Below, piece by piece: positions 10,896 through 29,901 of a DNA stretch of 45,058 bases. The DNA is taken from positions 1 through 45,058 of the forward strand of contig CADBEF010000002.1 in NCBI GenBank assembly GCA_902793555.1, read 5' to 3'. The stretch comes from an uncultured bacterium. Its GTDB lineage: Bacteria > Verrucomicrobiota > Kiritimatiellia > RFP12 > UBA3636. Position 1 is the stretch's first letter. Each line of letters begins with the position of its first letter. The position numbers were made by a program, and so were the translations under genes. The notes under the pieces were generated by a model. It saw only the letters and a program-made list of their open reading frames with translations. It was not told the origin of the DNA and ran no database searches.

Positions 10896-11009
10896 CTAGC
10901 CGGGGAACGCGCGGACCGCGTCGATTTCTTCCGCGCCGCAGAGCGGCATGCAGGGGCGGTCCACGCCGAGCGCGACGCCGCCGGCCGGGCCGTGGATCGC
11001 GGGGTTCAT
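10896..11009 (-). pseudogene. duplicated 3' fragment of epmA (class II synthetase motif 3)
   Basis: A 37-codon open frame whose last 36 codons copy the end of epmA: 10896-11003 matches 17134-17241 at 101 of 108 bases by my count, then similarity stops abruptly. It encodes GGVALGVDRPCMPLCGAEEI against GGAALGVDRLCMLLCGAEEI in the full gene. At least four residues differ, including two Leu to Pro changes inside the motif 3 helix, so a working synthetase segment is unlikely. Its ATG (11007-11009) overlaps the TGA of the sigma factor gene as ATGA, so it could still be translated as a peptide. A recombination remnant is the simplest reading. Confidence 0.8.
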
Positions 11010-11629
11010 GGCTTGCGGGATTCCTGCCGGGCGGGATGGTCGGCCGTTTCGGCGAGCGTCGTCGCGAGGGCGCGGAGGCGTTTCGAGACGCGGTGGCGGA
11101 TCTGGTCGACGGCGTTGCGCTCGATGCCGTAGTCCGCGGCGACGGCCGCGGGCTTCTCGCCGCCGATCGCGACGCGCAGGAAGACCTGCTTGGTGCGTTC
11201 GTCCGTGGCGGGGTCCGCGAGAAACTGCGAAAGGGCGACCTCGCAGGCCGCGTGGCGCCATTCGCGGAGCTCGTCCTCGGTCATGTCCCCCGACGCCGGT
11301 TCGAGCTCTGCGGCGTCCGCGAGGGCGTTCGCCTCGCGCAGGCGCCGCCGGATCGCGCCTGCCGCGTGCAGGCGCAGGATGCCGGCGAGGTAGTTGCGGA
11401 AATGCCCCTTCTCGTCCGGGGCGTGGACGTAGCCGGGCAGGCGTCTTGCGAGCGTGAGGAACGTCTCCTGCAGGAGGTCCTCCGACTCGGAGGCGAGCGA
11501 GGGGAAGCGCGACGCGAGGAAGCCTTCGAGCGCCGGGCGGTAGCGCGCGACGAGCTCGCTCCAACGGGGCGATTGCGCGTCCGCGCCGAGGTCGCGCAGG
11601 AGGGTGGTCGAGGTGGTGGGAGGGAGCAT
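11006..11629 (-). CDS. ECF-type RNA polymerase sigma factor
   Basis: Sigma-70 family protein of about 207 residues. Region 2 includes WSELVARYRPAL and SEDLLQETFLTLARRLPGY; region 4 is at the end (ATDERTKQVFLRVAIGGEKP then ADYGIERNAVDQIRHRVSKR) with the recognition helix-turn-helix. ATG 11627-11629 gives an N-terminus (LPPTTSTTLLRDLG) typical of ECF factors that begin near T-S-x-T-L-L. An alternative ATG at 11687-11689 overlaps the kinase stop as ATGA and would add 20 residues encoded almost wholly by a heptamer array. No anti-sigma gene is adjacent; the upstream co-transcribed kinase is the likely controller, as known for the EcfP/PknT pair in Vibrio (inference by analogy). Confidence 0.88.
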   Translation of the reverse strand: MLPPTTSTTLLRDLGADAQSPRWSELVARYRPALEGFLASRFPSLASESEDLLQETFLTLARRLPGYVHAPDEKGHFRNYLAGILRLHAAGAIRRRLREANALADAAELEPASGDMTEDELREWRHAACEVALSQFLADPATDERTKQVFLRVAIGGEKPAAVAADYGIERNAVDQIRHRVSKRLRALATTLAETADHPARQESRKP

Positions 11630-11633
11630 GTCA

Positions 11634-11668
11634 GTGACGAGTGACGAGTGGCGAGTGGCGAGTGACGA
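11634..11668 (-). repeat. tandem heptamer array (GTGACGA/GTGGCGA) before the sigma gene
   Basis: Five 7-base units on the plus strand: GTGACGA, GTGACGA, GTGGCGA, GTGGCGA, GTGACGA. On the coding strand this is TCGTCAC/TCGCCAC repeated, ending 4 bases before ATG 11629. If translation begins at the earlier ATG, the array encodes the peptide SDSSLATRHSSLVT. Confidence 0.85.
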
Positions 11669-13715: not shown

Positions 13716-16700
13716 ATGAATCCAACCGATGAATCCGCCTCGGACGAGGCCCTGGTTCCGGCCGCAGCGCCCGAACCCGTTCCCTATGTCGAACCCGATC
13801 TCGACCCCGATGTCGACGTTGAACCGCCCGTCGATCCGGACGCGCCGTGTCCGTTCTTCCCGGTTTTTGCGAACGGGATCTTGAACTGGTGCGGGCGCCG
13901 CGTCGCGAACGCGCGCCGGCGGGCGGACAAACTCCCCCCCGTGCTTGCGGCGCCGGTTCTCACGGTCCTCTCGTTCTTCGGCTTCTTCCTTGGAGCCGCC
14001 CTTCTCCACGCGGCGGCGGTTGTCGGCATCGTCCTGGCCGCGGTCTCCTCCCGGTTCGCGGACTACCTTCCCGGGCAGATGGGAATCCTCCTGTTCTTCG
14101 GCTTCGGCCTGGGCGGTGTCGCGCTTCAGGTCTTCCTGCTGATCCGCATCGCGCTGAAAGTCCGGAACGCCGCAGGCGAAGGACGCCTCCGGGTCTTCAA
14201 CTCGTATTTCGAACTCGCCGGGAACGCCCTCCTCGTCCTGTTCGTCACGTTCTTCGGCGTCGTCATGTTCCTTTACTGTTTCTTCGAGCCGTCGGCGGAG
14301 CGGTTGTCCAGCCTCGTGATGCTGTTCGCGTTCTTCGAAGGCGTTTCGGCCGTCGGCCTGGCGCTCCTCGTCCACTCCTGCTACGTGCGCAACAGGCATC
14401 TGGGCTGGAAGACGGCGTTCGCGGTCGTCATCGCCAAATACGTCGCCTCGTGGTTCAGCTACTTCTGCGTCATGCGGATCTGGACGGCGATCCAGCGGAT
14501 CCTGCATCCGGTCGGCAGTCTGGAGGCGGCGGAGAACCGCTGGCACGACCGCCACACGATGAACGAGAACGCGAAGCGCGGCCGCACGGAGGAGACGAAC
14601 GTCGTCGCGGAAGTCCTCATCGCGACCGCGATCACGGTGATTCTCAAGAAGACGATCGCCCCGCTCGTCACCGGCCGGCCCGAGGGCGAGCCCAACGGGT
14701 TCGCCGCCGCCATGCGCGACTTCCGGGCGTGGCGCGCCGGGCGCGGGGCGTTCCTCGCCGGAACGGTCGTCTCGTTCCTCCTGCTTTGCGTCGGGCTTGC
14801 CTACGCCGCCTTGTCCATGGAACGGCACGAAGCCGCGACGATCAAGGCCGAACAGAAAGAACAACAGCAGGCCTGGGCCGACAAGAGCAAGACGCAAAAC
14901 GCCCTGAAATGCCTCGGCGACGCCCTGCGCTCGCGGGTGCCGAACGACGCGATTCCGCCGGTCGGCGCCTTCTCGTCCGCCGACGACTACTTCAAGGCGC
15001 TCGCCCGGAAGGGACTTTTCAAGACGTTCCTCGCGGACGTCGTGGAGGCGTTCTGCCACGGCAACGAGTTCAATTCGGGGCGGGCGGACTGGCCGAAGCG
15101 TTACACGAAGGCGTTCGAGGAAAGCGGCCTCTTCTCGGCGGAGAACGGCGGTCTTCCGCCCGTTCTCCGCGTCTGGACCGTGCTGGCCGGCGAACCGGAC
15201 AACGTGGACGTCCCGTTCTTCTGGATGTCGAGTCTCGGGAATCCGCTTTCCGACCTGCAGGATCTCCGCACCCGCGACGGCGACGTGAAGAAGGCGAAAA
15301 TCGACGCCAAGATTCCGTTCGCCGTGATTGCGGACAGAATGGGCCAAAACGTCAACGCGACGGAAAACTACGGCCTGTTGCTCAACGACCATTTCTCGGC
15401 CGTCGGCCAAGGCGGCGAGTTCCAGCTGCTCGAACCGGAAAACGGATTCGACCGGGAAACCGTCCGCCGGTATCTCGACGCGGTCGCGGCGGCCGAAAAG
15501 GCGATCCGCGAAGGCGACGAACGGGCCGCGGCCGAAAAGAAGAGCGCGCGCGACAAGGAGGCCATGCGGTTTTTCGACGACGGGGAACCGGAGGCCGGGA
15601 GCGCGCAGGCGACGGAGCCGGAGGCGAAACCGGAACCCGCGCCGAAGACGAACCGGGAACCGGAACCGGCTCCCGAACCGGCGGCAGAGACCGAATCCGC
15701 TCCGGAGCCGAAGACTCCGGCTCCCGAACCGGCGGCAGAGACCGAATCCGCTCCGAAGCCGAAGACTCCGGCCGCCAAGCCGGAGGATTCAAAGCCGACC
15801 GCGGCGCCGGCGCCCGCGAAAACGGACAAGCTGGCCGAGGTCGCGGACCGGCAGGCTGCGGCCTACCAGGACGGAACGAAATCGGCCGGGCAGATTCTCA
15901 AGTGGCTCGACTCCCCGAAAGTCCACGAATCGAAACGGGAACGGCTCCGTGCGCTTTTGGTGGAGCGCGGCGTTCCGCTGGCCGATGCCGAACGCAAAGA
16001 GAAGGAAGAGGCGAAGCGCAAGGCGGACGAGGAGCGCAAGGCGGCCGAAGAATCGAAGCGCAAGGCGGCCGAGGAACGCAAGGCGGCCGAAGAAGCGAAG
16101 CGCAAGGCGGACGAGGAACGCAAGGCGGCCGAAGAAGCGAAGCGCAAGGCGGCCGAGGAACGCAGGGCGGCCGAATTCAAGAAACGGCAGGAAAAGGCCG
16201 AGGCCGAGCGTCTCAAGAGGCAGGAAGAAGCCCGGAAACGCCAGGAAGAAGCCGACCGCCAGGCCAAGGAGGAAGCTGATCGAGAGCGGAAACGAAAGGA
16301 CAAAGAGGAGCGGGATCGGCAGAAGGCGCTGGACGAATTCACCAAGAGCATGCAAAAAATGTCGGAGGCCTCCCTCTCAATGGGCGCACGCGGGGAAGAG
16401 GAGGAAGACGTCGACGAGCTGGAAGAGGCGAACGCCGACAATCCGTTTTTCCGGAACGGGACCTTCCAAGGGGAGGCCGGCGTCGACGAACGGCGGGCCG
16501 CGCCGGAGGAAGGCCGCCGCGCCGAAGAACGGCGGCGCCGCGCCGAAGAACAGCGGGTTGCGCGGGAGGAACAGCGCCGCCGCGCCGAAGAACAGAGGGC
16601 TGCGCGGGAGGAACAGCGCCGCCGCGTTGAGGAGGCGAATGCCCGGCGCGCGGCGGAACGGAAGCGGGCGGAGGAGCGCAACGCGGAGCGCGAGGCCGCG

Positions 16701-17015
16701 CAAGTCGATCCGTACGCGATCTCGCCCATTCCGGGAGACGGAACGATCGAGGACGATCCCCCGCCGGTCCTCCACCCGAAAACGCGTTCCGCGGAGCCGG
16801 CGTCGCGAAACAGGCCCGGCGCGACGCCTCCCGCCATGCCCGACGCCATGGTCGAGCAGTTGGCGACCGGCATCCGGATGTCCGTCCAAGGCGGGCAGAT
16901 GACGCCGGCCCAGGCGGCCTTCATGCTGGACAACGCGACGCTCTCGGACGCGCAGAAGGCGACGGTCCGGAAGAAACTCGCCGCGGAAGGCATCTCCCTC
17001 CCCCGCGGAAAGTGA
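13716..17015 (+). CDS. large multi-pass membrane protein with Pro/Glu and coiled-coil segments
   Basis: 1099 residues, no family recognised. Order: an acidic Pro/Asp-rich N-terminus (1-45); about five hydrophobic segments between residues 75 and 255 (for example VLTVLSFFGFFLGAALLHAA); another helix near 350-370 (FLAGTVVSFLLLCVGLAYAA). A globular part (about 395-590) contains DYFKALARKGLFKTFLADVV and the segment IPFAVIADRMGQNV. After that come a Pro/Glu/Thr linker with two 17-residue repeats, a long Lys/Glu/Ala coiled coil of 14-residue repeats (about 767-820), a second Glu/Arg coiled coil (about 925-990), and a C-terminal helical tail ending ISLPRGK. It is divergent from the kinase-sigma operon, so it may be a target or partner of that pathway (inference). 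An envelope-spanning structural role is possible. Confidence 0.8.
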   Translation: MNPTDESASDEALVPAAAPEPVPYVEPDLDPDVDVEPPVDPDAPCPFFPVFANGILNWCGRRVANARRRADKLPPVLAAPVLTVLSFFGFFLGAALLHAAAVVGIVLAAVSSRFADYLPGQMGILLFFGFGLGGVALQVFLLIRIALKVRNAAGEGRLRVFNSYFELAGNALLVLFVTFFGVVMFLYCFFEPSAERLSSLVMLFAFFEGVSAVGLALLVHSCYVRNRHLGWKTAFAVVIAKYVASWFSYFCVMRIWTAIQRILHPVGSLEAAENRWHDRHTMNENAKRGRTEETNVVAEVLIATAITVILKKTIAPLVTGRPEGEPNGFAAAMRDFRAWRAGRGAFLAGTVVSFLLLCVGLAYAALSMERHEAATIKAEQKEQQQAWADKSKTQNALKCLGDALRSRVPNDAIPPVGAFSSADDYFKALARKGLFKTFLADVVEAFCHGNEFNSGRADWPKRYTKAFEESGLFSAENGGLPPVLRVWTVLAGEPDNVDVPFFWMSSLGNPLSDLQDLRTRDGDVKKAKIDAKIPFAVIADRMGQNVNATENYGLLLNDHFSAVGQGGEFQLLEPENGFDRETVRRYLDAVAAAEKAIREGDERAAAEKKSARDKEAMRFFDDGEPEAGSAQATEPEAKPEPAPKTNREPEPAPEPAAETESAPEPKTPAPEPAAETESAPKPKTPAAKPEDSKPTAAPAPAKTDKLAEVADRQAAAYQDGTKSAGQILKWLDSPKVHESKRERLRALLVERGVPLADAERKEKEEAKRKADEERKAAEESKRKAAEERKAAEEAKRKADEERKAAEEAKRKAAEERRAAEFKKRQEKAEAERLKRQEEARKRQEEADRQAKEEADRERKRKDKEERDRQKALDEFTKSMQKMSEASLSMGARGEEEEDVDELEEANADNPFFRNGTFQGEAGVDERRAAPEEGRRAEERRRRAEEQRVAREEQRRRAEEQRAAREEQRRRVEEANARRAAERKRAEERNAEREAAQVDPYAISPIPGDGTIEDDPPPVLHPKTRSAEPASRNRPGATPPAMPDAMVEQLATGIRMSVQGGQMTPAQAAFMLDNATLSDAQKATVRKKLAAEGISLPRGK
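15670..15771 (+). repeat. 51-bp direct repeat, two copies, in the Pro/Glu linker
   Basis: Copies at 15670-15720 and 15721-15771 differ at one base by my reading (GAGCCG against AAGCCG). They encode PEPAAETESAP followed by EPKTPA or KPKTPA. A recent in-frame duplication. Confidence 0.9.
16014..16178 (+). repeat. 42-bp coding repeat, about four copies, coiled coil
   Basis: Unit of 14 residues KRKADEERKAAEES, repeated from 16014, 16056, 16098 and 16140 (last copy shorter and diverged). It encodes a charged single-helix or coiled-coil stretch. Such arrays can change copy number by slippage. Confidence 0.85.
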
Positions 17016-25608: not shown

Positions 25609-28600
25609 TCAGCCGAGCTGGCGGGCGACGCGGAGAAATTCGGTGGCGCTCCAGGCCTGCGCGTCGCAGCCGCGGCCGGCGTGCGGCGCGTCGCCGTCCA
25701 TGATCTCGGGGATCTGCCCGATGCAGCCCTCCTCGAGGAGCGGCAGCGCGGAGGCGAGCAGCGAGCGCGCGGCGGGGACCGCGGACTGGCCGTAGACCTT
25801 CACGAGCGCTTCGGCGTAGGCCGGGAACGGCCACGGCCAGGCGGTTCCGTTGTGGTAGGCGGGCTTGCGGCGCGTGTCCTCGTCGCCCTCGTAGCGCCCC
25901 CAGTAGGGCGCGTTCGGGTCGTTGAGGAGCGCGCCGTTCGCGCCGCGGACCGGCAGCGCGAACGCGGTGCGGCCCGGGGCGAGCGTGCGGATCGCGCCGG
26001 GGACGAGCAACCGCTCCGCGGACGCGACGACGGCGCGCGCGGCGGGGTGGTCCGCGTCGATCGCGCCGAGCGTGACGGCGAAGAGCTGGTTGCAGCGCAG
26101 ATGGTCGTCCGCGACGGCGTCCGCCGCGGGGCGGTAGCCGCCCGGCGCGTGCCGGCAGTCGGAGAGGAAGCCGCGTTCCGGCGCCCAGAAGAGGCGCGGC
26201 AGCGACGCGCGCGCGGTGTCGCGCAGACCCCGCCACGGGCCCTTCGGCTCGATCTTCGCGGCGAGCGAGAGCGCGGCGATCCAGAGCGCCTGGATCTCGA
26301 CCGGGTAGCCTTCGCGCGGCGTGCCGGCCGGCCAGTTCGTGTCCATCCACGTGAAGTGCGGCGGCGAGAAGACGAGCGCGGTGGCGGGGTCGACGCGGAT
26401 GCCGTTCGGCGTGCCGTCGAGATACCCGCGGAGGATCCGGAGGACGACCTTCGCGAGGTCGGGCGGCGGCTTGCCGCGCCCGGCCTCGCCCGCGACCACG
26501 CAGAACCACAGCGGGGCGTCGGAGGTGTCGCGGTTGGATGCGTCGGCGCCGCAGATCATGTTGGGCAGCGTGCCGCGGTCCTCGAAGTCGCCGAACTTGC
26601 GCAGGACCGCGAGCGCGACGTCGGAGAGGCCGTCCGCGAGCAGGCCGCGCAGCGCGATGAACGTGTCGCGCCCCCAGTCGAGGAACCACGGGTAGCCGGC
26701 GATCACGGTCGGCGCGTCCTCGCGGACGGCGAGGAAGGTGCGCGCCGAAGCGGCCAAGGCTGCTTCAAAGCCGCCTTTGGCGGCGTTCGCAGGTTCGCAG
26801 GTTTGCAGGTTCGCTGGTTGAACGTGCGAACTTGCGAACTTGCGAACTTGTGAACCGTCGTCCGGCACGCCTGCGTGCAGGACGACGGCGTCCCCGCCCG
26901 CGAGAGTCGCGGAGAACCAGCCGGGGCTGAAGAGGTCGGTGGAGCCGTCCTGGCCGCGCGCGGCCTCGTCCGGATGCGCGACCATGTAGTGCCATTCCGG
27001 TTCCGCGACGAAGCGGCCGCCGTCGAGCCGGACCGACAGCGGGACGCGGCCGGGGGGCGCGAACACGAAGCCGGCGGGCTCGGGTCGGACGGCGGCGGGG
27101 AATTCGCGCTCGGGGCCGGTGAAGGCCTTCGTCTTCCCGTGGAAGGAGCGCGATTCGACGTCGGGCCGGAGGATCAGCTCGACGGACTCGGCGTCGTCCG
27201 GGCGCGCGGGGTCTCCGCCGCCGGGCTCGCGCGAGAAGGAGAACGCGGCGCGGTTCTCGCCGGGGACGAGGCGCAGCTCGGCCGCGAGGGCGATCGTGCG
27301 GCCGGTGCCGACGGGCGCGTCGAAGGTCCAGCGCACGGCGTCGGGCCCGGCGCGGAACGAGCGCAGGCACGCGGCGTCGAGCGGCGTGGAGAAGCCGTGG
27401 TTCACGATCCACGCGCGGAGGCGCGGCAGCAACACGACGCGGTCGCACGGGACGGCGGGGTCGGGGTTGGCGGCGAGCAGCGCGTCGTATTGGCTGCGGA
27501 CTTCGCCGAAGCGGGCGCGGACGTGCGCCATCGCGCCGCGGCCGTTGACAAGGAGCGCCGTGAAGTCGCCGCGGCGGACCTCGGCGCCGGACTTCTCGAG
27601 GCGCGGGGCGCGGCAGCGCGCGGGCAGGACCTGCAGCGCGACCGTGCCGCGCAGCGGGCGGTCGGGCGCGGAGAGCTCGAGGCGGAGCGTGGCGGGGACG
27701 GGCTCGTCCGCGTCCGTGGCGGGGTGGTCGACGAACGCGGCGTGCGAGCCGTCCGCGAGCGCGAACGAGCCGGCGCTCTTGCGGAGCGAACGGCCGCCGG
27801 CCGCGTATTCGAGGTGCGCGCGGAACGGCGCGGCGGCTCGCACCAGGAGGAAGTTGCCGGCCGGGAGCGGGACGACGCGGCGCTCGTCCTCGGGGAAGCG
27901 GCAGGTCGTGACGGGCGGCATCGCGCCGTCCGGGAGGAAGCGGCGCACCGCGGCGAGCGGGTCGCCCGCGAGCTCGTCCGCGAGTGCGTCGACGTCCTCG
28001 TCCGGATCGAGCGGGCGGCCCCGCGTGAGCACGCGGCGCAGGCGCAGCGCGGCCATGCGAAGCTCCTGGCGGCGCACAGCCGCGGGCGGCTCGCGCGAGG
28101 GCGGTGCCGCGAGCGCGGCGTCGAGCGCGGCAAGATCGGAGGCCTGTTTCGACAGGCAGAGGACTTGGCCGGGAGCGAGAGTCGTGGTTGAAGAGGTCGA
28201 AAAGGTTGAAGGGGCTCCGGTTTCGGTCGTCGAGTCGAAGAGGACGGTCGCGCCGGCGGCGTCGAAGCCATGCCAGGAGACGGGTTGCTCGCGGTCCGGG
28301 TCGAGATTCGCGAGAACCAACAATTCAACCCTTTCAACCGCTTCCACTCCGCGCGCGCTGCGCAACAGCGCGAGCGAATTGCCGTCCCCGTGCTGGACCA
28401 TCTCGACGTGCGCGCCGGCGCCGAAGGCGGGATGGGTCGCGAGGAGTGCGTTGAGGCGGCGGAGGGCGGCGACCTGGTTGTCGGGCGCGCCCCAGCGCAG
28501 GGCGGAGGCGCCGTGGACGTCGACCTTCTCGTCCGCGAACCACTCGACGCCGTTCGTGATGCCGAAGCAACCCTGCTGCGAGGCGAGCGCCGCGAGGGCG

Positions 28601-29901
28601 GTGCGCATCCGGGCCCACGCGTGCGAACGCGCGGCGAGGCGGTTGTTGTCGTGCGTCTCGGCGTAGTGCGCGAGCGGGCCGGTCTCTTCGCCCATCGCGA
28701 TCGCGCCGGGCAGGTAGCGCTCGAACGCGGAGCGGTCGTCGGTCTGGAAGAGCTCCGAGTAGGCCCAGTCGAGACCCTGCTCGGAAATGAGGTCGCGCGT
28801 GACCGAGATCTTGCCGCCGAGCCCCTCGAGGAGGAAGACCGTGTCGGGGAACTGCTCGCGGACGCGCGCCACGATGTAGCGCCACGTGTCGGCGGGGACC
28901 ATGTAGCCGGCGTCGCAGCGGAAGCCGTCCACGCCCTGCTCGCACCAGTATTCGAAGACGCCCGCCATGAACTCGCGCAGGCCGGGCTTCGCGTAGTCCA
29001 GCTCCACGAGGTCCTCCCACGTGACGCCCCACGCGCCGGGCGAATGGAAGCGTCCGTCCGGCTCGCGGCGGAACCACTCCGGGTGGTGCGCCTGCAGGGT
29101 GGAAGCCCAGCCCGTGTGGTTGGCCGGCAGGTCGATGAAGAGGCGCGCGCCGCGGACGTGGACCGCGTCGACGAGCTCGCGGAACTGGTCGAGCGGCGTC
29201 GCGGCCGGGTCGAACTCCGCGAGCGCGGGGTTGACGGCGAGGAAGTCCGTCCCCGCGAACGGCGAGCCGAAGCGGCCCATGCGCGCGTAGGTCGTCGGGA
29301 TCGGGTGGATGGGCAGGAGCTGGACGACGCGGAAGCCCTCCTCCAGCACGATCGTGTCGAGGCGGCGCGCGAGCGCGCGGAACGTTCCCTCGGGCGGGAT
29401 GGCCGCGTAGCCGCGGGCGTCGAGCGCGAGCGCTTCGGCGGGCGCCGGGTCGCTGCGCCCCGCCTCGCACGCGGGGCCGAACTGGCGCGGGAAGGCGCAG
29501 TAGACGGACGCCCCCTGGACCGTCCACGCGGGCGAGACCTTGATCTCGACGTCGCCGCCGTCGGGCCAGCCCGGGCGCGTCGAGCCGGGCTCGAAGTAGC
29601 ACGCCTTGGCGCGGAAGAAGCCGATGTCGACGAGCGGCAGGCGGACCTGCCAGACCTCGGAAGCCCCCTCGCGGCGCGCGAGGCGCATCGGGACGTCGTT
29701 CCAGTCGAGCGCGAGGGCGGGGCGGTCCTCGTCGAAGCTCGCGACCGTCTCGCGGCGCTTGCGCTTCGCGCCGCCGAGCGAGGTGCGCAGGACGGCGCGG
29801 CCGCCGGCGGGCGCGCCGTCGACGCGCAGCTCGAAGGAGAACGTGTCGCCGGAATGGCGCAGGAAGCGCCCGCCGGGCGCGGGGGACTGGACGACCGTCA
29901 T
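25609..29901 (-). CDS. bifunctional glycogen debranching enzyme, GH13-like plus GH133
   Basis: 1430 residues with the domain order of the eukaryotic debrancher. Residues 1-120 form a beta-sandwich-like start. About 130-600 is an alpha-amylase-type barrel with nucleophile Asp330 (GFRCDAGY), acid/base Glu359 (FLLEGLGG) and Asp418 (ETHDNNR), so transferase or hydrolase activity on alpha-1,4 glucan is likely. A linker and beta-rich region follow (about 640-1010). From about 1040 to 1430 is the amylo-alpha-1,6-glucosidase domain with GYPWFLDWGRDTFIALRG near 1070. It would empty branched glycogen to linear chains and glucose. Three short-repeat insertions lie in frame (26785-26854, 28186-28212, 28322-28339). 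It starts 16 bases after the GNAT gene, with a weak GAGG site. Confidence 0.9.
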   Translation of the reverse strand: MTVVQSPAPGGRFLRHSGDTFSFELRVDGAPAGGRAVLRTSLGGAKRKRRETVASFDEDRPALALDWNDVPMRLARREGASEVWQVRLPLVDIGFFRAKACYFEPGSTRPGWPDGGDVEIKVSPAWTVQGASVYCAFPRQFGPACEAGRSDPAPAEALALDARGYAAIPPEGTFRALARRLDTIVLEEGFRVVQLLPIHPIPTTYARMGRFGSPFAGTDFLAVNPALAEFDPAATPLDQFRELVDAVHVRGARLFIDLPANHTGWASTLQAHHPEWFRREPDGRFHSPGAWGVTWEDLVELDYAKPGLREFMAGVFEYWCEQGVDGFRCDAGYMVPADTWRYIVARVREQFPDTVFLLEGLGGKISVTRDLISEQGLDWAYSELFQTDDRSAFERYLPGAIAMGEETGPLAHYAETHDNNRLAARSHAWARMRTALAALASQQGCFGITNGVEWFADEKVDVHGASALRWGAPDNQVAALRRLNALLATHPAFGAGAHVEMVQHGDGNSLALLRSARGVEAVERVELLVLANLDPDREQPVSWHGFDAAGATVLFDSTTETGAPSTFSTSSTTTLAPGQVLCLSKQASDLAALDAALAAPPSREPPAAVRRQELRMAALRLRRVLTRGRPLDPDEDVDALADELAGDPLAAVRRFLPDGAMPPVTTCRFPEDERRVVPLPAGNFLLVRAAAPFRAHLEYAAGGRSLRKSAGSFALADGSHAAFVDHPATDADEPVPATLRLELSAPDRPLRGTVALQVLPARCRAPRLEKSGAEVRRGDFTALLVNGRGAMAHVRARFGEVRSQYDALLAANPDPAVPCDRVVLLPRLRAWIVNHGFSTPLDAACLRSFRAGPDAVRWTFDAPVGTGRTIALAAELRLVPGENRAAFSFSREPGGGDPARPDDAESVELILRPDVESRSFHGKTKAFTGPEREFPAAVRPEPAGFVFAPPGRVPLSVRLDGGRFVAEPEWHYMVAHPDEAARGQDGSTDLFSPGWFSATLAGGDAVVLHAGVPDDGSQVRKFASSHVQPANLQTCEPANAAKGGFEAALAASARTFLAVREDAPTVIAGYPWFLDWGRDTFIALRGLLADGLSDVALAVLRKFGDFEDRGTLPNMICGADASNRDTSDAPLWFCVVAGEAGRGKPPPDLAKVVLRILRGYLDGTPNGIRVDPATALVFSPPHFTWMDTNWPAGTPREGYPVEIQALWIAALSLAAKIEPKGPWRGLRDTARASLPRLFWAPERGFLSDCRHAPGGYRPAADAVADDHLRCNQLFAVTLGAIDADHPAARAVVASAERLLVPGAIRTLAPGRTAFALPVRGANGALLNDPNAPYWGRYEGDEDTRRKPAYHNGTAWPWPFPAYAEALVKVYGQSAVPAARSLLASALPLLEEGCIGQIPEIMDGDAPHAGRGCDAQAWSATEFLRVARQLG
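26785..26854. repeat. octamer inverted array inside the debranching enzyme linker
   Basis: Four units of GTTCGCAG type (26785-26816) are followed by four of AACTTGCG type (26821-26852). The second arm is the reverse complement of the first apart from G/A transitions, so RNA could fold with G-U pairs into one long hairpin. It encodes residues of about 1016-1039 (VRKFASSHVQPANLQTCEPA), between the middle region and the GH133 domain. Confidence 0.9.
28186..28212. repeat. 9-bp tandem array inside the debranching enzyme (first arm)
   Basis: Three units: GGTTGAAGA, GGTCGAAAA, GGTTGAAGG. On the coding strand they encode part of APSTFSTSSTTTLAP, a Ser/Thr stretch unlike its surroundings. Confidence 0.7.
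28322..28339. repeat. 9-bp tandem array inside the debranching enzyme (second arm, inverted)
   Basis: Two units, AATTCAACC and CTTTCAACC, the reverse complement type of the array 110 bases to the left. They encode part of VEAVERVELLVLANLDPD. Confidence 0.65.

What the first reader, a model, noticed from the sequence alone, without database searches (positions are those of the whole stretch)
26785..26854. Octamer inverted array inserted in frame in the debranching enzyme
Four GTTCGCAG-type units followed by four AACTTGCG-type units form a near-perfect 30-base inverted repeat inside the coding sequence, in the linker before the GH133 domain. The differences between arms are G/A transitions, which keep G-U pairing in RNA. 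The peptide (VRKFASSHVQPANLQTCEPA) is unlike its surroundings in composition. A 70-base element landing in frame in a linker suggests an active short element that is selected for in-frame, structure-neutral sites, or an RNA hairpin that slows translation between domains.
Basis: partly seen in the sequence, partly recalled or inferred. Interest (0 to 1): 0.65.

Follow-up and report, generated by a model that had tools for sequence, protein, structure and literature searches.

The report
In-frame octamer inverted array, one of many
A 71-base run of inverted 8-base repeats inside a glycogen-debranching gene of a rumen bacterium is one of many such short repeat arrays in its genome, found mostly just before genes but also, in frame, inside loops of essential enzymes, where sister species carry a different array at the same spot.

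Summary
The array is real: four GTTCGCAG-type units, then four GAACTTGC-type units (26785-26855), beside a GCCGCC-AAA-GGCGGC hairpin (26770-26784). It is in frame in the minus-strand debranching gene 25609-29901, between GDE_N and GDE_C. The genome is a rumen Kiritimatiellae MAG. The octamer belongs to a dispersed family (CGAACNNN, about 21 loci; reversed control 0) and to a wider set of 7- and 8-mer arrays. In 974 kb, 29 of 36 arrays are intergenic; 18 of those 29 lie within 40 nt of a start codon. Others lie in frame in conserved proteins: CarB (two loops), CarA, CTP synthase, glutamate synthase. In CTP synthase nine relatives keep an empty 35-residue stretch and seven carry arrays of five unit types at one point. 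In the debranching linker itself array-free sisters have linkers about as long, so a clean insertion is not shown there. The G-U argument fails: wobble pairs form only in the non-coding strand; the mRNA has A-C mismatches. Four array-free congeners argue against a required pausing hairpin. Best reading: spreading short-repeat arrays tolerated in leaders and surface loops. The copying mechanism is unknown; reverse transcriptase and RAYT are disfavoured.

The parts
26785..26819 (-). First arm on the + strand: GTTCGCAG-type octamers, 4.4 copies (on the mRNA this is the second arm, GAACCTGC-type)
26820..26855 (-). Second arm on the + strand: GAACTTGC-type octamers, 4.5 copies (on the mRNA this is the first arm, GTTCGCAA-type)
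26770..26784 (.). Hairpin GCCGCC-TTT-GGCGGC adjoining the array; GAACGCCGCCNNAGGCGGC recurs at 6 exact places in the genome, several beside other CGAAC arrays
25609..29901 (-). Glycogen debranching enzyme gene that carries the array in frame (1430 aa; GDE_N 783-1006, array 1016-1039, GDE_C 1055-1424)
11633..11668 (-). A second array of the same wider class in the window: heptamers CGTCACT-type, ending 3 nt before the predicted start of the minus-strand gene 11006-11629

Best explanation
The segment is one copy of a dispersed class of short tandem arrays (7- and 8-base units, several sequence families) in rumen Kiritimatiellae. Array units are copied to new places in the genome by a mechanism not identified here (inferred: microhomology-driven template switching or repair copying from existing arrays, followed by slippage within each arm). 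Copies survive mainly in short intergenic leaders just before start codons and, when they keep the reading frame and contain no stop, in disordered loops between or within protein domains. In the debranching enzyme the array makes up a 25-residue disordered linker. Its hairpin is a by-product of the inverted arrangement, not a conserved control element. Shown: dispersal of the unit, position bias, in-frame arrays in several enzymes, empty sites and different unit families at the same loops, absence of the hairpin in close relatives. Inferred: the copying mechanism, and neutrality in coding sequence.
For: Same unit at about 21 loci in the genome with 45 matches against 0 for the reversed control; present in 7 of 11 genomes of the genus, none of 8 other genomes of the family. 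Lag scan: excess of 7- and 8-mer arrays over trinucleotide shuffles; 29 of 36 arrays intergenic although 93% is coding, 18 of 29 within 40 nt of a predicted start against 26% for random intergenic positions, 16 of 18 with the C-rich strand as sense. CGAACNNN loci: 8 of 9 intergenic ones lie 1-39 nt before a start in the same orientation; 8 lie in frame in sense orientation in predicted genes. Different arrays at the same loops of orthologues: CTP synthase (empty 35-residue stretch in 9 genomes, inserts of 7-25 residues in 7 genomes), CarB two loops, GDE linker. Leader arrays identical between G000 and G008 while coding-loop arrays on the same contigs differ. Array residues 247-270 of the modelled fragment lie in a pLDDT < 50 segment, 247-273. 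Families confirmed for CarB, CarA, CTP synthase, glutamate synthase.
Against: No copying machinery or target-site signature was found. Position bias near starts and the consistent orientation could mean a function in leaders, in which case 'tolerated' is too weak for the class as a whole. In the GDE linker no empty-site orthologue proves insertion. The gene calls are from a simple hexamer method and some antisense 'coding' cases are untrustworthy. All genomes are MAGs.
Confidence: 0.62

Rival explanations
1. A true mobile element: the array (with its GCCGCC hairpin) is a non-autonomous unit moved by an encoded enzyme such as a RAYT-type Y1 transposase or a reverse transcriptase.
For: Unit sequence and the adjoining hairpin recur together at several places; Y1_Tnp-type genes occur in the genome and in 9 of 10 congeners tested, weak scores; arrays differ at the same site between sister species, so something inserts or replaces them.
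Against: RVT_1 is absent from G000 and from the other array-bearing congeners tested. Y1_Tnp is absent from G037 and G028, which have arrays. Copies have no common ends or target duplication that I could see, vary in unit number, and several unrelated unit families behave alike.
Confidence: 0.15
2. A functional mRNA hairpin that slows translation between the GDE_N and GDE_C domains and helps them fold.
For: Strong local fold in the mRNA (z = -5.9; linker z = -7.4 against codon shuffles), at a domain boundary.
Against: Absent in G003, G005 and G007 and only weak in G001, all of the same genus; where arms differ, the mRNA has mismatches (7 of 35 positions, 5 of them A-C) and only the antisense strand keeps G-U pairs; no compensatory pattern.
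Confidence: 0.06
3. Purely local slippage: a microsatellite born in the linker from chance sequence, unrelated to other arrays.
For: Each arm is nearly homogeneous (CTG variants in one, TTG in the other), as slippage within an arm would give; the linker is hypervariable and its length is not greater than in array-free sisters.
Against: The same octamer word recurs at about 21 places in the genome and does not occur as such in other genera of the family; chance birth would give unrelated words.
Confidence: 0.12
4. The arrays are binding sites for an RNA- or DNA-binding regulator, selected in leaders, and the coding copies are strays.
For: Leader bias and strand bias; identical leader arrays in G000 and G008; similar proposals for TAACTGA repeats (PMC4679880) and for paired octamer and heptamer arrays of Geobacter metallireducens (PMC2700814).
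Against: Many unrelated unit families occupy the same positions, which one regulator would not recognise; flanking leader sequence is nearly as conserved as the arrays.
Confidence: 0.25

Closest known systems
TAACTGA direct repeats of marine Beggiatoaceae, Cyanobacteria and Bacteroidetes (PMC4679880)
   Same: Short tandem heptamers, dispersed, mostly within a few nucleotides upstream of start codons; some inside ORFs; spread mechanism unknown
   Different: One heptamer with stops in the forward frames, almost only direct; here many 7- and 8-mer families, often inverted in coding sequence, stop-free and in conserved enzymes
Paired octamer and heptamer arrays of Geobacter metallireducens (PMC2700814)
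   Same: Three to five tandem octamers or heptamers, frequently as pairs on opposite strands, between and within genes; many families in one genome
   Different: Annotated there as putative regulator binding sites; no in-frame analysis in orthologues; different unit sequences and phylum
Rickettsia and Wolbachia palindromic elements (RPE/WPE; PMC3767692)
   Same: Palindromic repeats inserted in frame in surface-exposed parts of housekeeping proteins, with different element groups near the same site in orthologues
   Different: RPEs are 100-150 bp sequences with a fixed consensus; here arrays of 7- or 8-base units of variable number
Long simple sequence repeats with 5-11 nt units (as summarised in PMC4679880)
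   Same: Heptamer and octamer tandem repeats in bacteria
   Different: Usually local slippage products linked to phase variation; here dispersed words, leader bias, inverted pairs, stable between species

Membership tests
Dispersed CGAACNNN octamer arrays of this genus | At least three tandem units with CGAAC core | tested here: met
   One exact match to CGAACN3CGAACN3CGAAC in the window and four with one mismatch, at 26785-26855
TAACTGA-type leader heptamer repeats | Unit TAACTGA | tested here: not met
   Units here are GTTCGCAG / GAACTTGC
TAACTGA-type leader heptamer repeats | Arrays within several nucleotides upstream of start codons | tested here: met
   Met for the wider class, not for this copy, which is inside a gene
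Rickettsia palindromic elements | Palindromic element inside an ORF without breaking the frame | tested here: met
   GDE ORF open through the array
Rickettsia palindromic elements | 100-150 bp element with a fixed consensus | tested here: not met
   71-86 bp array of octamers; other loci carry other unit numbers and families
Rickettsia palindromic elements | Clean insertion relative to orthologues | tested here: inconclusive
   Clean in CTP synthase and CarB; not demonstrable in the GDE linker
REP/RAYT elements | Co-occurrence with a Y1 transposase | tested here: not met
   Array-bearing G037 and G028 have no Y1_Tnp match
Phase-variable simple sequence repeats | Rapid unit-number variation | tested here: not met
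   Leader arrays identical in unit number and order between G000 and G008; no strain-level data
Known structured RNA (Rfam) | Match above gathering score | tested here: not met
   Only sub-threshold hairpin matches

The most novel reading that the evidence does not exclude
An unknown copying process, not dependent on reverse transcriptase or RAYT, writes lineage-specific 7- to 8-base repeat arrays, often as inverted pairs, into the same few loops of essential enzymes and into gene leaders across an order of bacteria, and overwrites them with new unit families between sister species.
Probability: 0.2. Interest if true: 0.8.

Novelty: new variant of a known kind. Interest (0 to 1): 0.5.

Why it matters
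It shows that very short repeat arrays can spread in a bacterial genome and be tolerated in frame in core enzymes such as CTP synthase and carbamoyl-phosphate synthase, with sister species holding different unit families at the same loop. The question of how such arrays spread (slippage, template switching or a dedicated enzyme) becomes testable, because orthologous empty and filled sites are now listed. It also warns against reading such hairpins as conserved regulatory RNA.

Tried and rejected
Assembly artefact: rejected, since independent MAGs (goat, roe deer and other rumen or metagenome sources) show the same class at the same loops. Reverse-transcriptase (telomerase-like) spread: RVT_1 is absent. 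RAYT spread: absent from array-bearing genomes. Rfam family: none. Viral carriage: only 6 stretches among 2.9 million viral contigs carry a four-unit array, not followed up. Translational bypass or frameshift at arrays: considered because CTP synthase of G000 is split into frames, but the breaks lie at duplicated stretches outside the array and look like assembly errors. A fixed arm order (G-rich arm first) was seen in most inverted arrays but not in the CAATGCA and CGACTTGG ones, so no claim is made.

Full report
Observation. The array is in the window as described: four GTTCGCAG-type units at 26785-26816 and four GAACTTGC-type units at 26820-26851, the arms running to 26819 and 26855. It is far from chance. 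It lies in frame in the minus-strand glycogen debranching gene 25609-29901 and encodes residues 1016-1039, between GDE_N (783-1006) and GDE_C (1055-1424). A 15-base hairpin GCCGCC-TTT-GGCGGC adjoins it at 26770-26784, and the combination GAACGCCGCCNNAGGCGGC recurs at six exact places of the genome, several next to other arrays of the same octamer.

Strand matters. The gene is on the minus strand. Pairing of the arms gives 28 Watson-Crick and 5 G-U pairs of 35 positions on the plus strand, but 28 Watson-Crick pairs, no G-U and 7 mismatches (5 of them A-C) on the minus strand, the mRNA.

The unit is dispersed. In the own genome (3.38 Mb MAG, 325 contigs, 89% complete), CGAACNNN in three or more copies gives 45 matches with up to one mismatch and 0 for the reversed control, at about 21 loci. 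Exact matches occur in 7 of 11 genomes of the genus and in none of the 8 genomes of other genera of the family; five more genomes of the order have them. Public records identify the relatives as Kiritimatiellae (Verrucomicrobiota), several from goat, sheep or deer rumen.

A wider class. A lag scan shows an excess of 7-mer and 8-mer arrays over shuffled sequence, of many unit families such as ACCTCTA, CATTCAG, CGTCACT, ACCACCGA, GACCATCA and CGAACCTT. In 974 kb of the own genome, 36 arrays were found; 29 are intergenic although 93% of the bases are coding, 18 of the 29 lie within 40 nt of a predicted start (random intergenic positions 26%, binomial p = 4e-5), and in 16 of 18 the C-rich strand is the sense strand. 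Gene calls are from a hexamer model made here. Of 21 CGAACNNN loci, 9 are intergenic, 8 of them 1-39 nt before a start in the same orientation; 8 lie in frame in the same orientation in predicted genes, with peptides such as EPSNLRTFEPSN; 4 further 'coding' cases are antisense in ORFs that I do not trust. The CGAACCTT unit is free of stops in all frames of both strands.

In-frame arrays in conserved enzymes. CarB of the own genome has two (RPNHRTTEPLNHPT and PMHNAPCTMHNAERDSIVHCASGIEHS), CTP synthase one, and G008 has arrays in CarA, glutamate synthase and twice in the debranching enzyme (families checked with G000 and G008 proteins). The decisive comparison is CTP synthase: the stretch from TMRLG to ERHRHRYE is 35 residues in nine relatives (G029, G011, G014, G026, G030, G022, G024, G021, G019) and 42-60 residues in seven (G008, G000, G007, G001, G003, G023, G020), all extra residues lying after LYG and coming from arrays of five unit types: CGTCACT, CAATGCA inverted, CACAAAG inverted, an AATGCG-type repeat, and a CACGAAA/TTTCGTG inverted array. 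CarB shows the same pattern at two loops, with G036 and G011 short and other genomes carrying different families. These are clean, frame-keeping insertions at the same loop.

The debranching linker. Here the picture is less clean. G002, G008 and G010 also have arrays in this linker, each of another type, while G001, G003, G005 and G007 have none and yet have linkers of 61-68 residues against 68 in the own genome. G002 and G008 have a further array near residue 961. So the array makes up most of a hypervariable linker, but insertion of a defined 70-base unit cannot be shown. An AlphaFold model of residues 770-1428 gives pLDDT below 50 for fragment residues 247-273, which are residues 1016-1042, between a strand and a helix (overall model quality is modest, mean pLDDT 68.5).

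Stability. Leader arrays of CTP synthase and of two genes on contig C20 are identical in unit number and order in G000 and G008, in leaders that are otherwise about 97% identical. On the same contigs, coding-loop arrays differ between the two species. Arrays are therefore not hypermutable satellites; new arrays arrive or replace old ones at permissive loops.

Mechanism. Each arm here is nearly homogeneous but differs from the other arm (CTG-type against TTG-type), which fits slippage within each arm after the inverted arrangement arose (inference). How the same words reach many places is open. A reverse transcriptase is unlikely as RVT_1 is absent from the array-bearing congeners tested. A RAYT-type enzyme is not required, as G037 and G028 have arrays without a Y1_Tnp match. 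I favour microhomology-driven template switching or repair copying from existing arrays; this is inference. Inverted arrays are seen mainly in coding sequence and rarely directly before starts; a hairpin at a start codon would hinder initiation, which would remove such arrays there (inference).

Comparison. Leader heptamers TAACTGA in Beggiatoaceae (PMC4679880), paired octamer and heptamer arrays in Geobacter metallireducens (PMC2700814) and the in-frame palindromic elements of Rickettsia (PMC3767692) each share part of the picture. None combines variable 7- and 8-mer families, leader placement, and in-frame inverted arrays at shared loops of core enzymes. I found no paper on such arrays in Kiritimatiellae, though the literature search was limited to open-access text.

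Verdict. Real, in frame, non-random, and part of a dispersed class; the proposed pausing hairpin is not supported; the 'active element' idea is right in spirit for the class but unproven for this site.

Noticed in passing
window 11633-11668: Heptamer array (CGTCACT/CGCCACT) ending 3 nt before the predicted start of the minus-strand gene 11006-11629.
   Followed up: partly
window 15666-15772, 16005-16175, 16480-16626: Long in-frame coding repeats (51-bp and 42-bp units) in the + strand gene 13716-17015.
   Followed up: no
L138:143-209, L131:9798-9862, L184:16859-16924: Intergenic inverted arrays of CGACTTGG/CAAGTCG-type octamers, arms ordered opposite to most coding arrays.
   Followed up: no
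L133:2372-2881 (G000:C19): CTP synthase of the own genome is split by duplicated short stretches, probably assembly errors.
   Followed up: partly
L061, G049:C41:45-241 and C49: Contig ends of G049 consist of CGAACAGY octamer satellite, which probably breaks the assembly.
   Followed up: no
L218 (G039), L220 (G032), L221-L223 (G003, G001, G007): CarB loops of other genera carry arrays of other words (CAGGATTAA/AATCCTGTT inverted, GGGAACA, CACAAAG).
   Followed up: partly
L313-L318: Six viral contig stretches carry four-unit CGAACNTN arrays.
   Followed up: no
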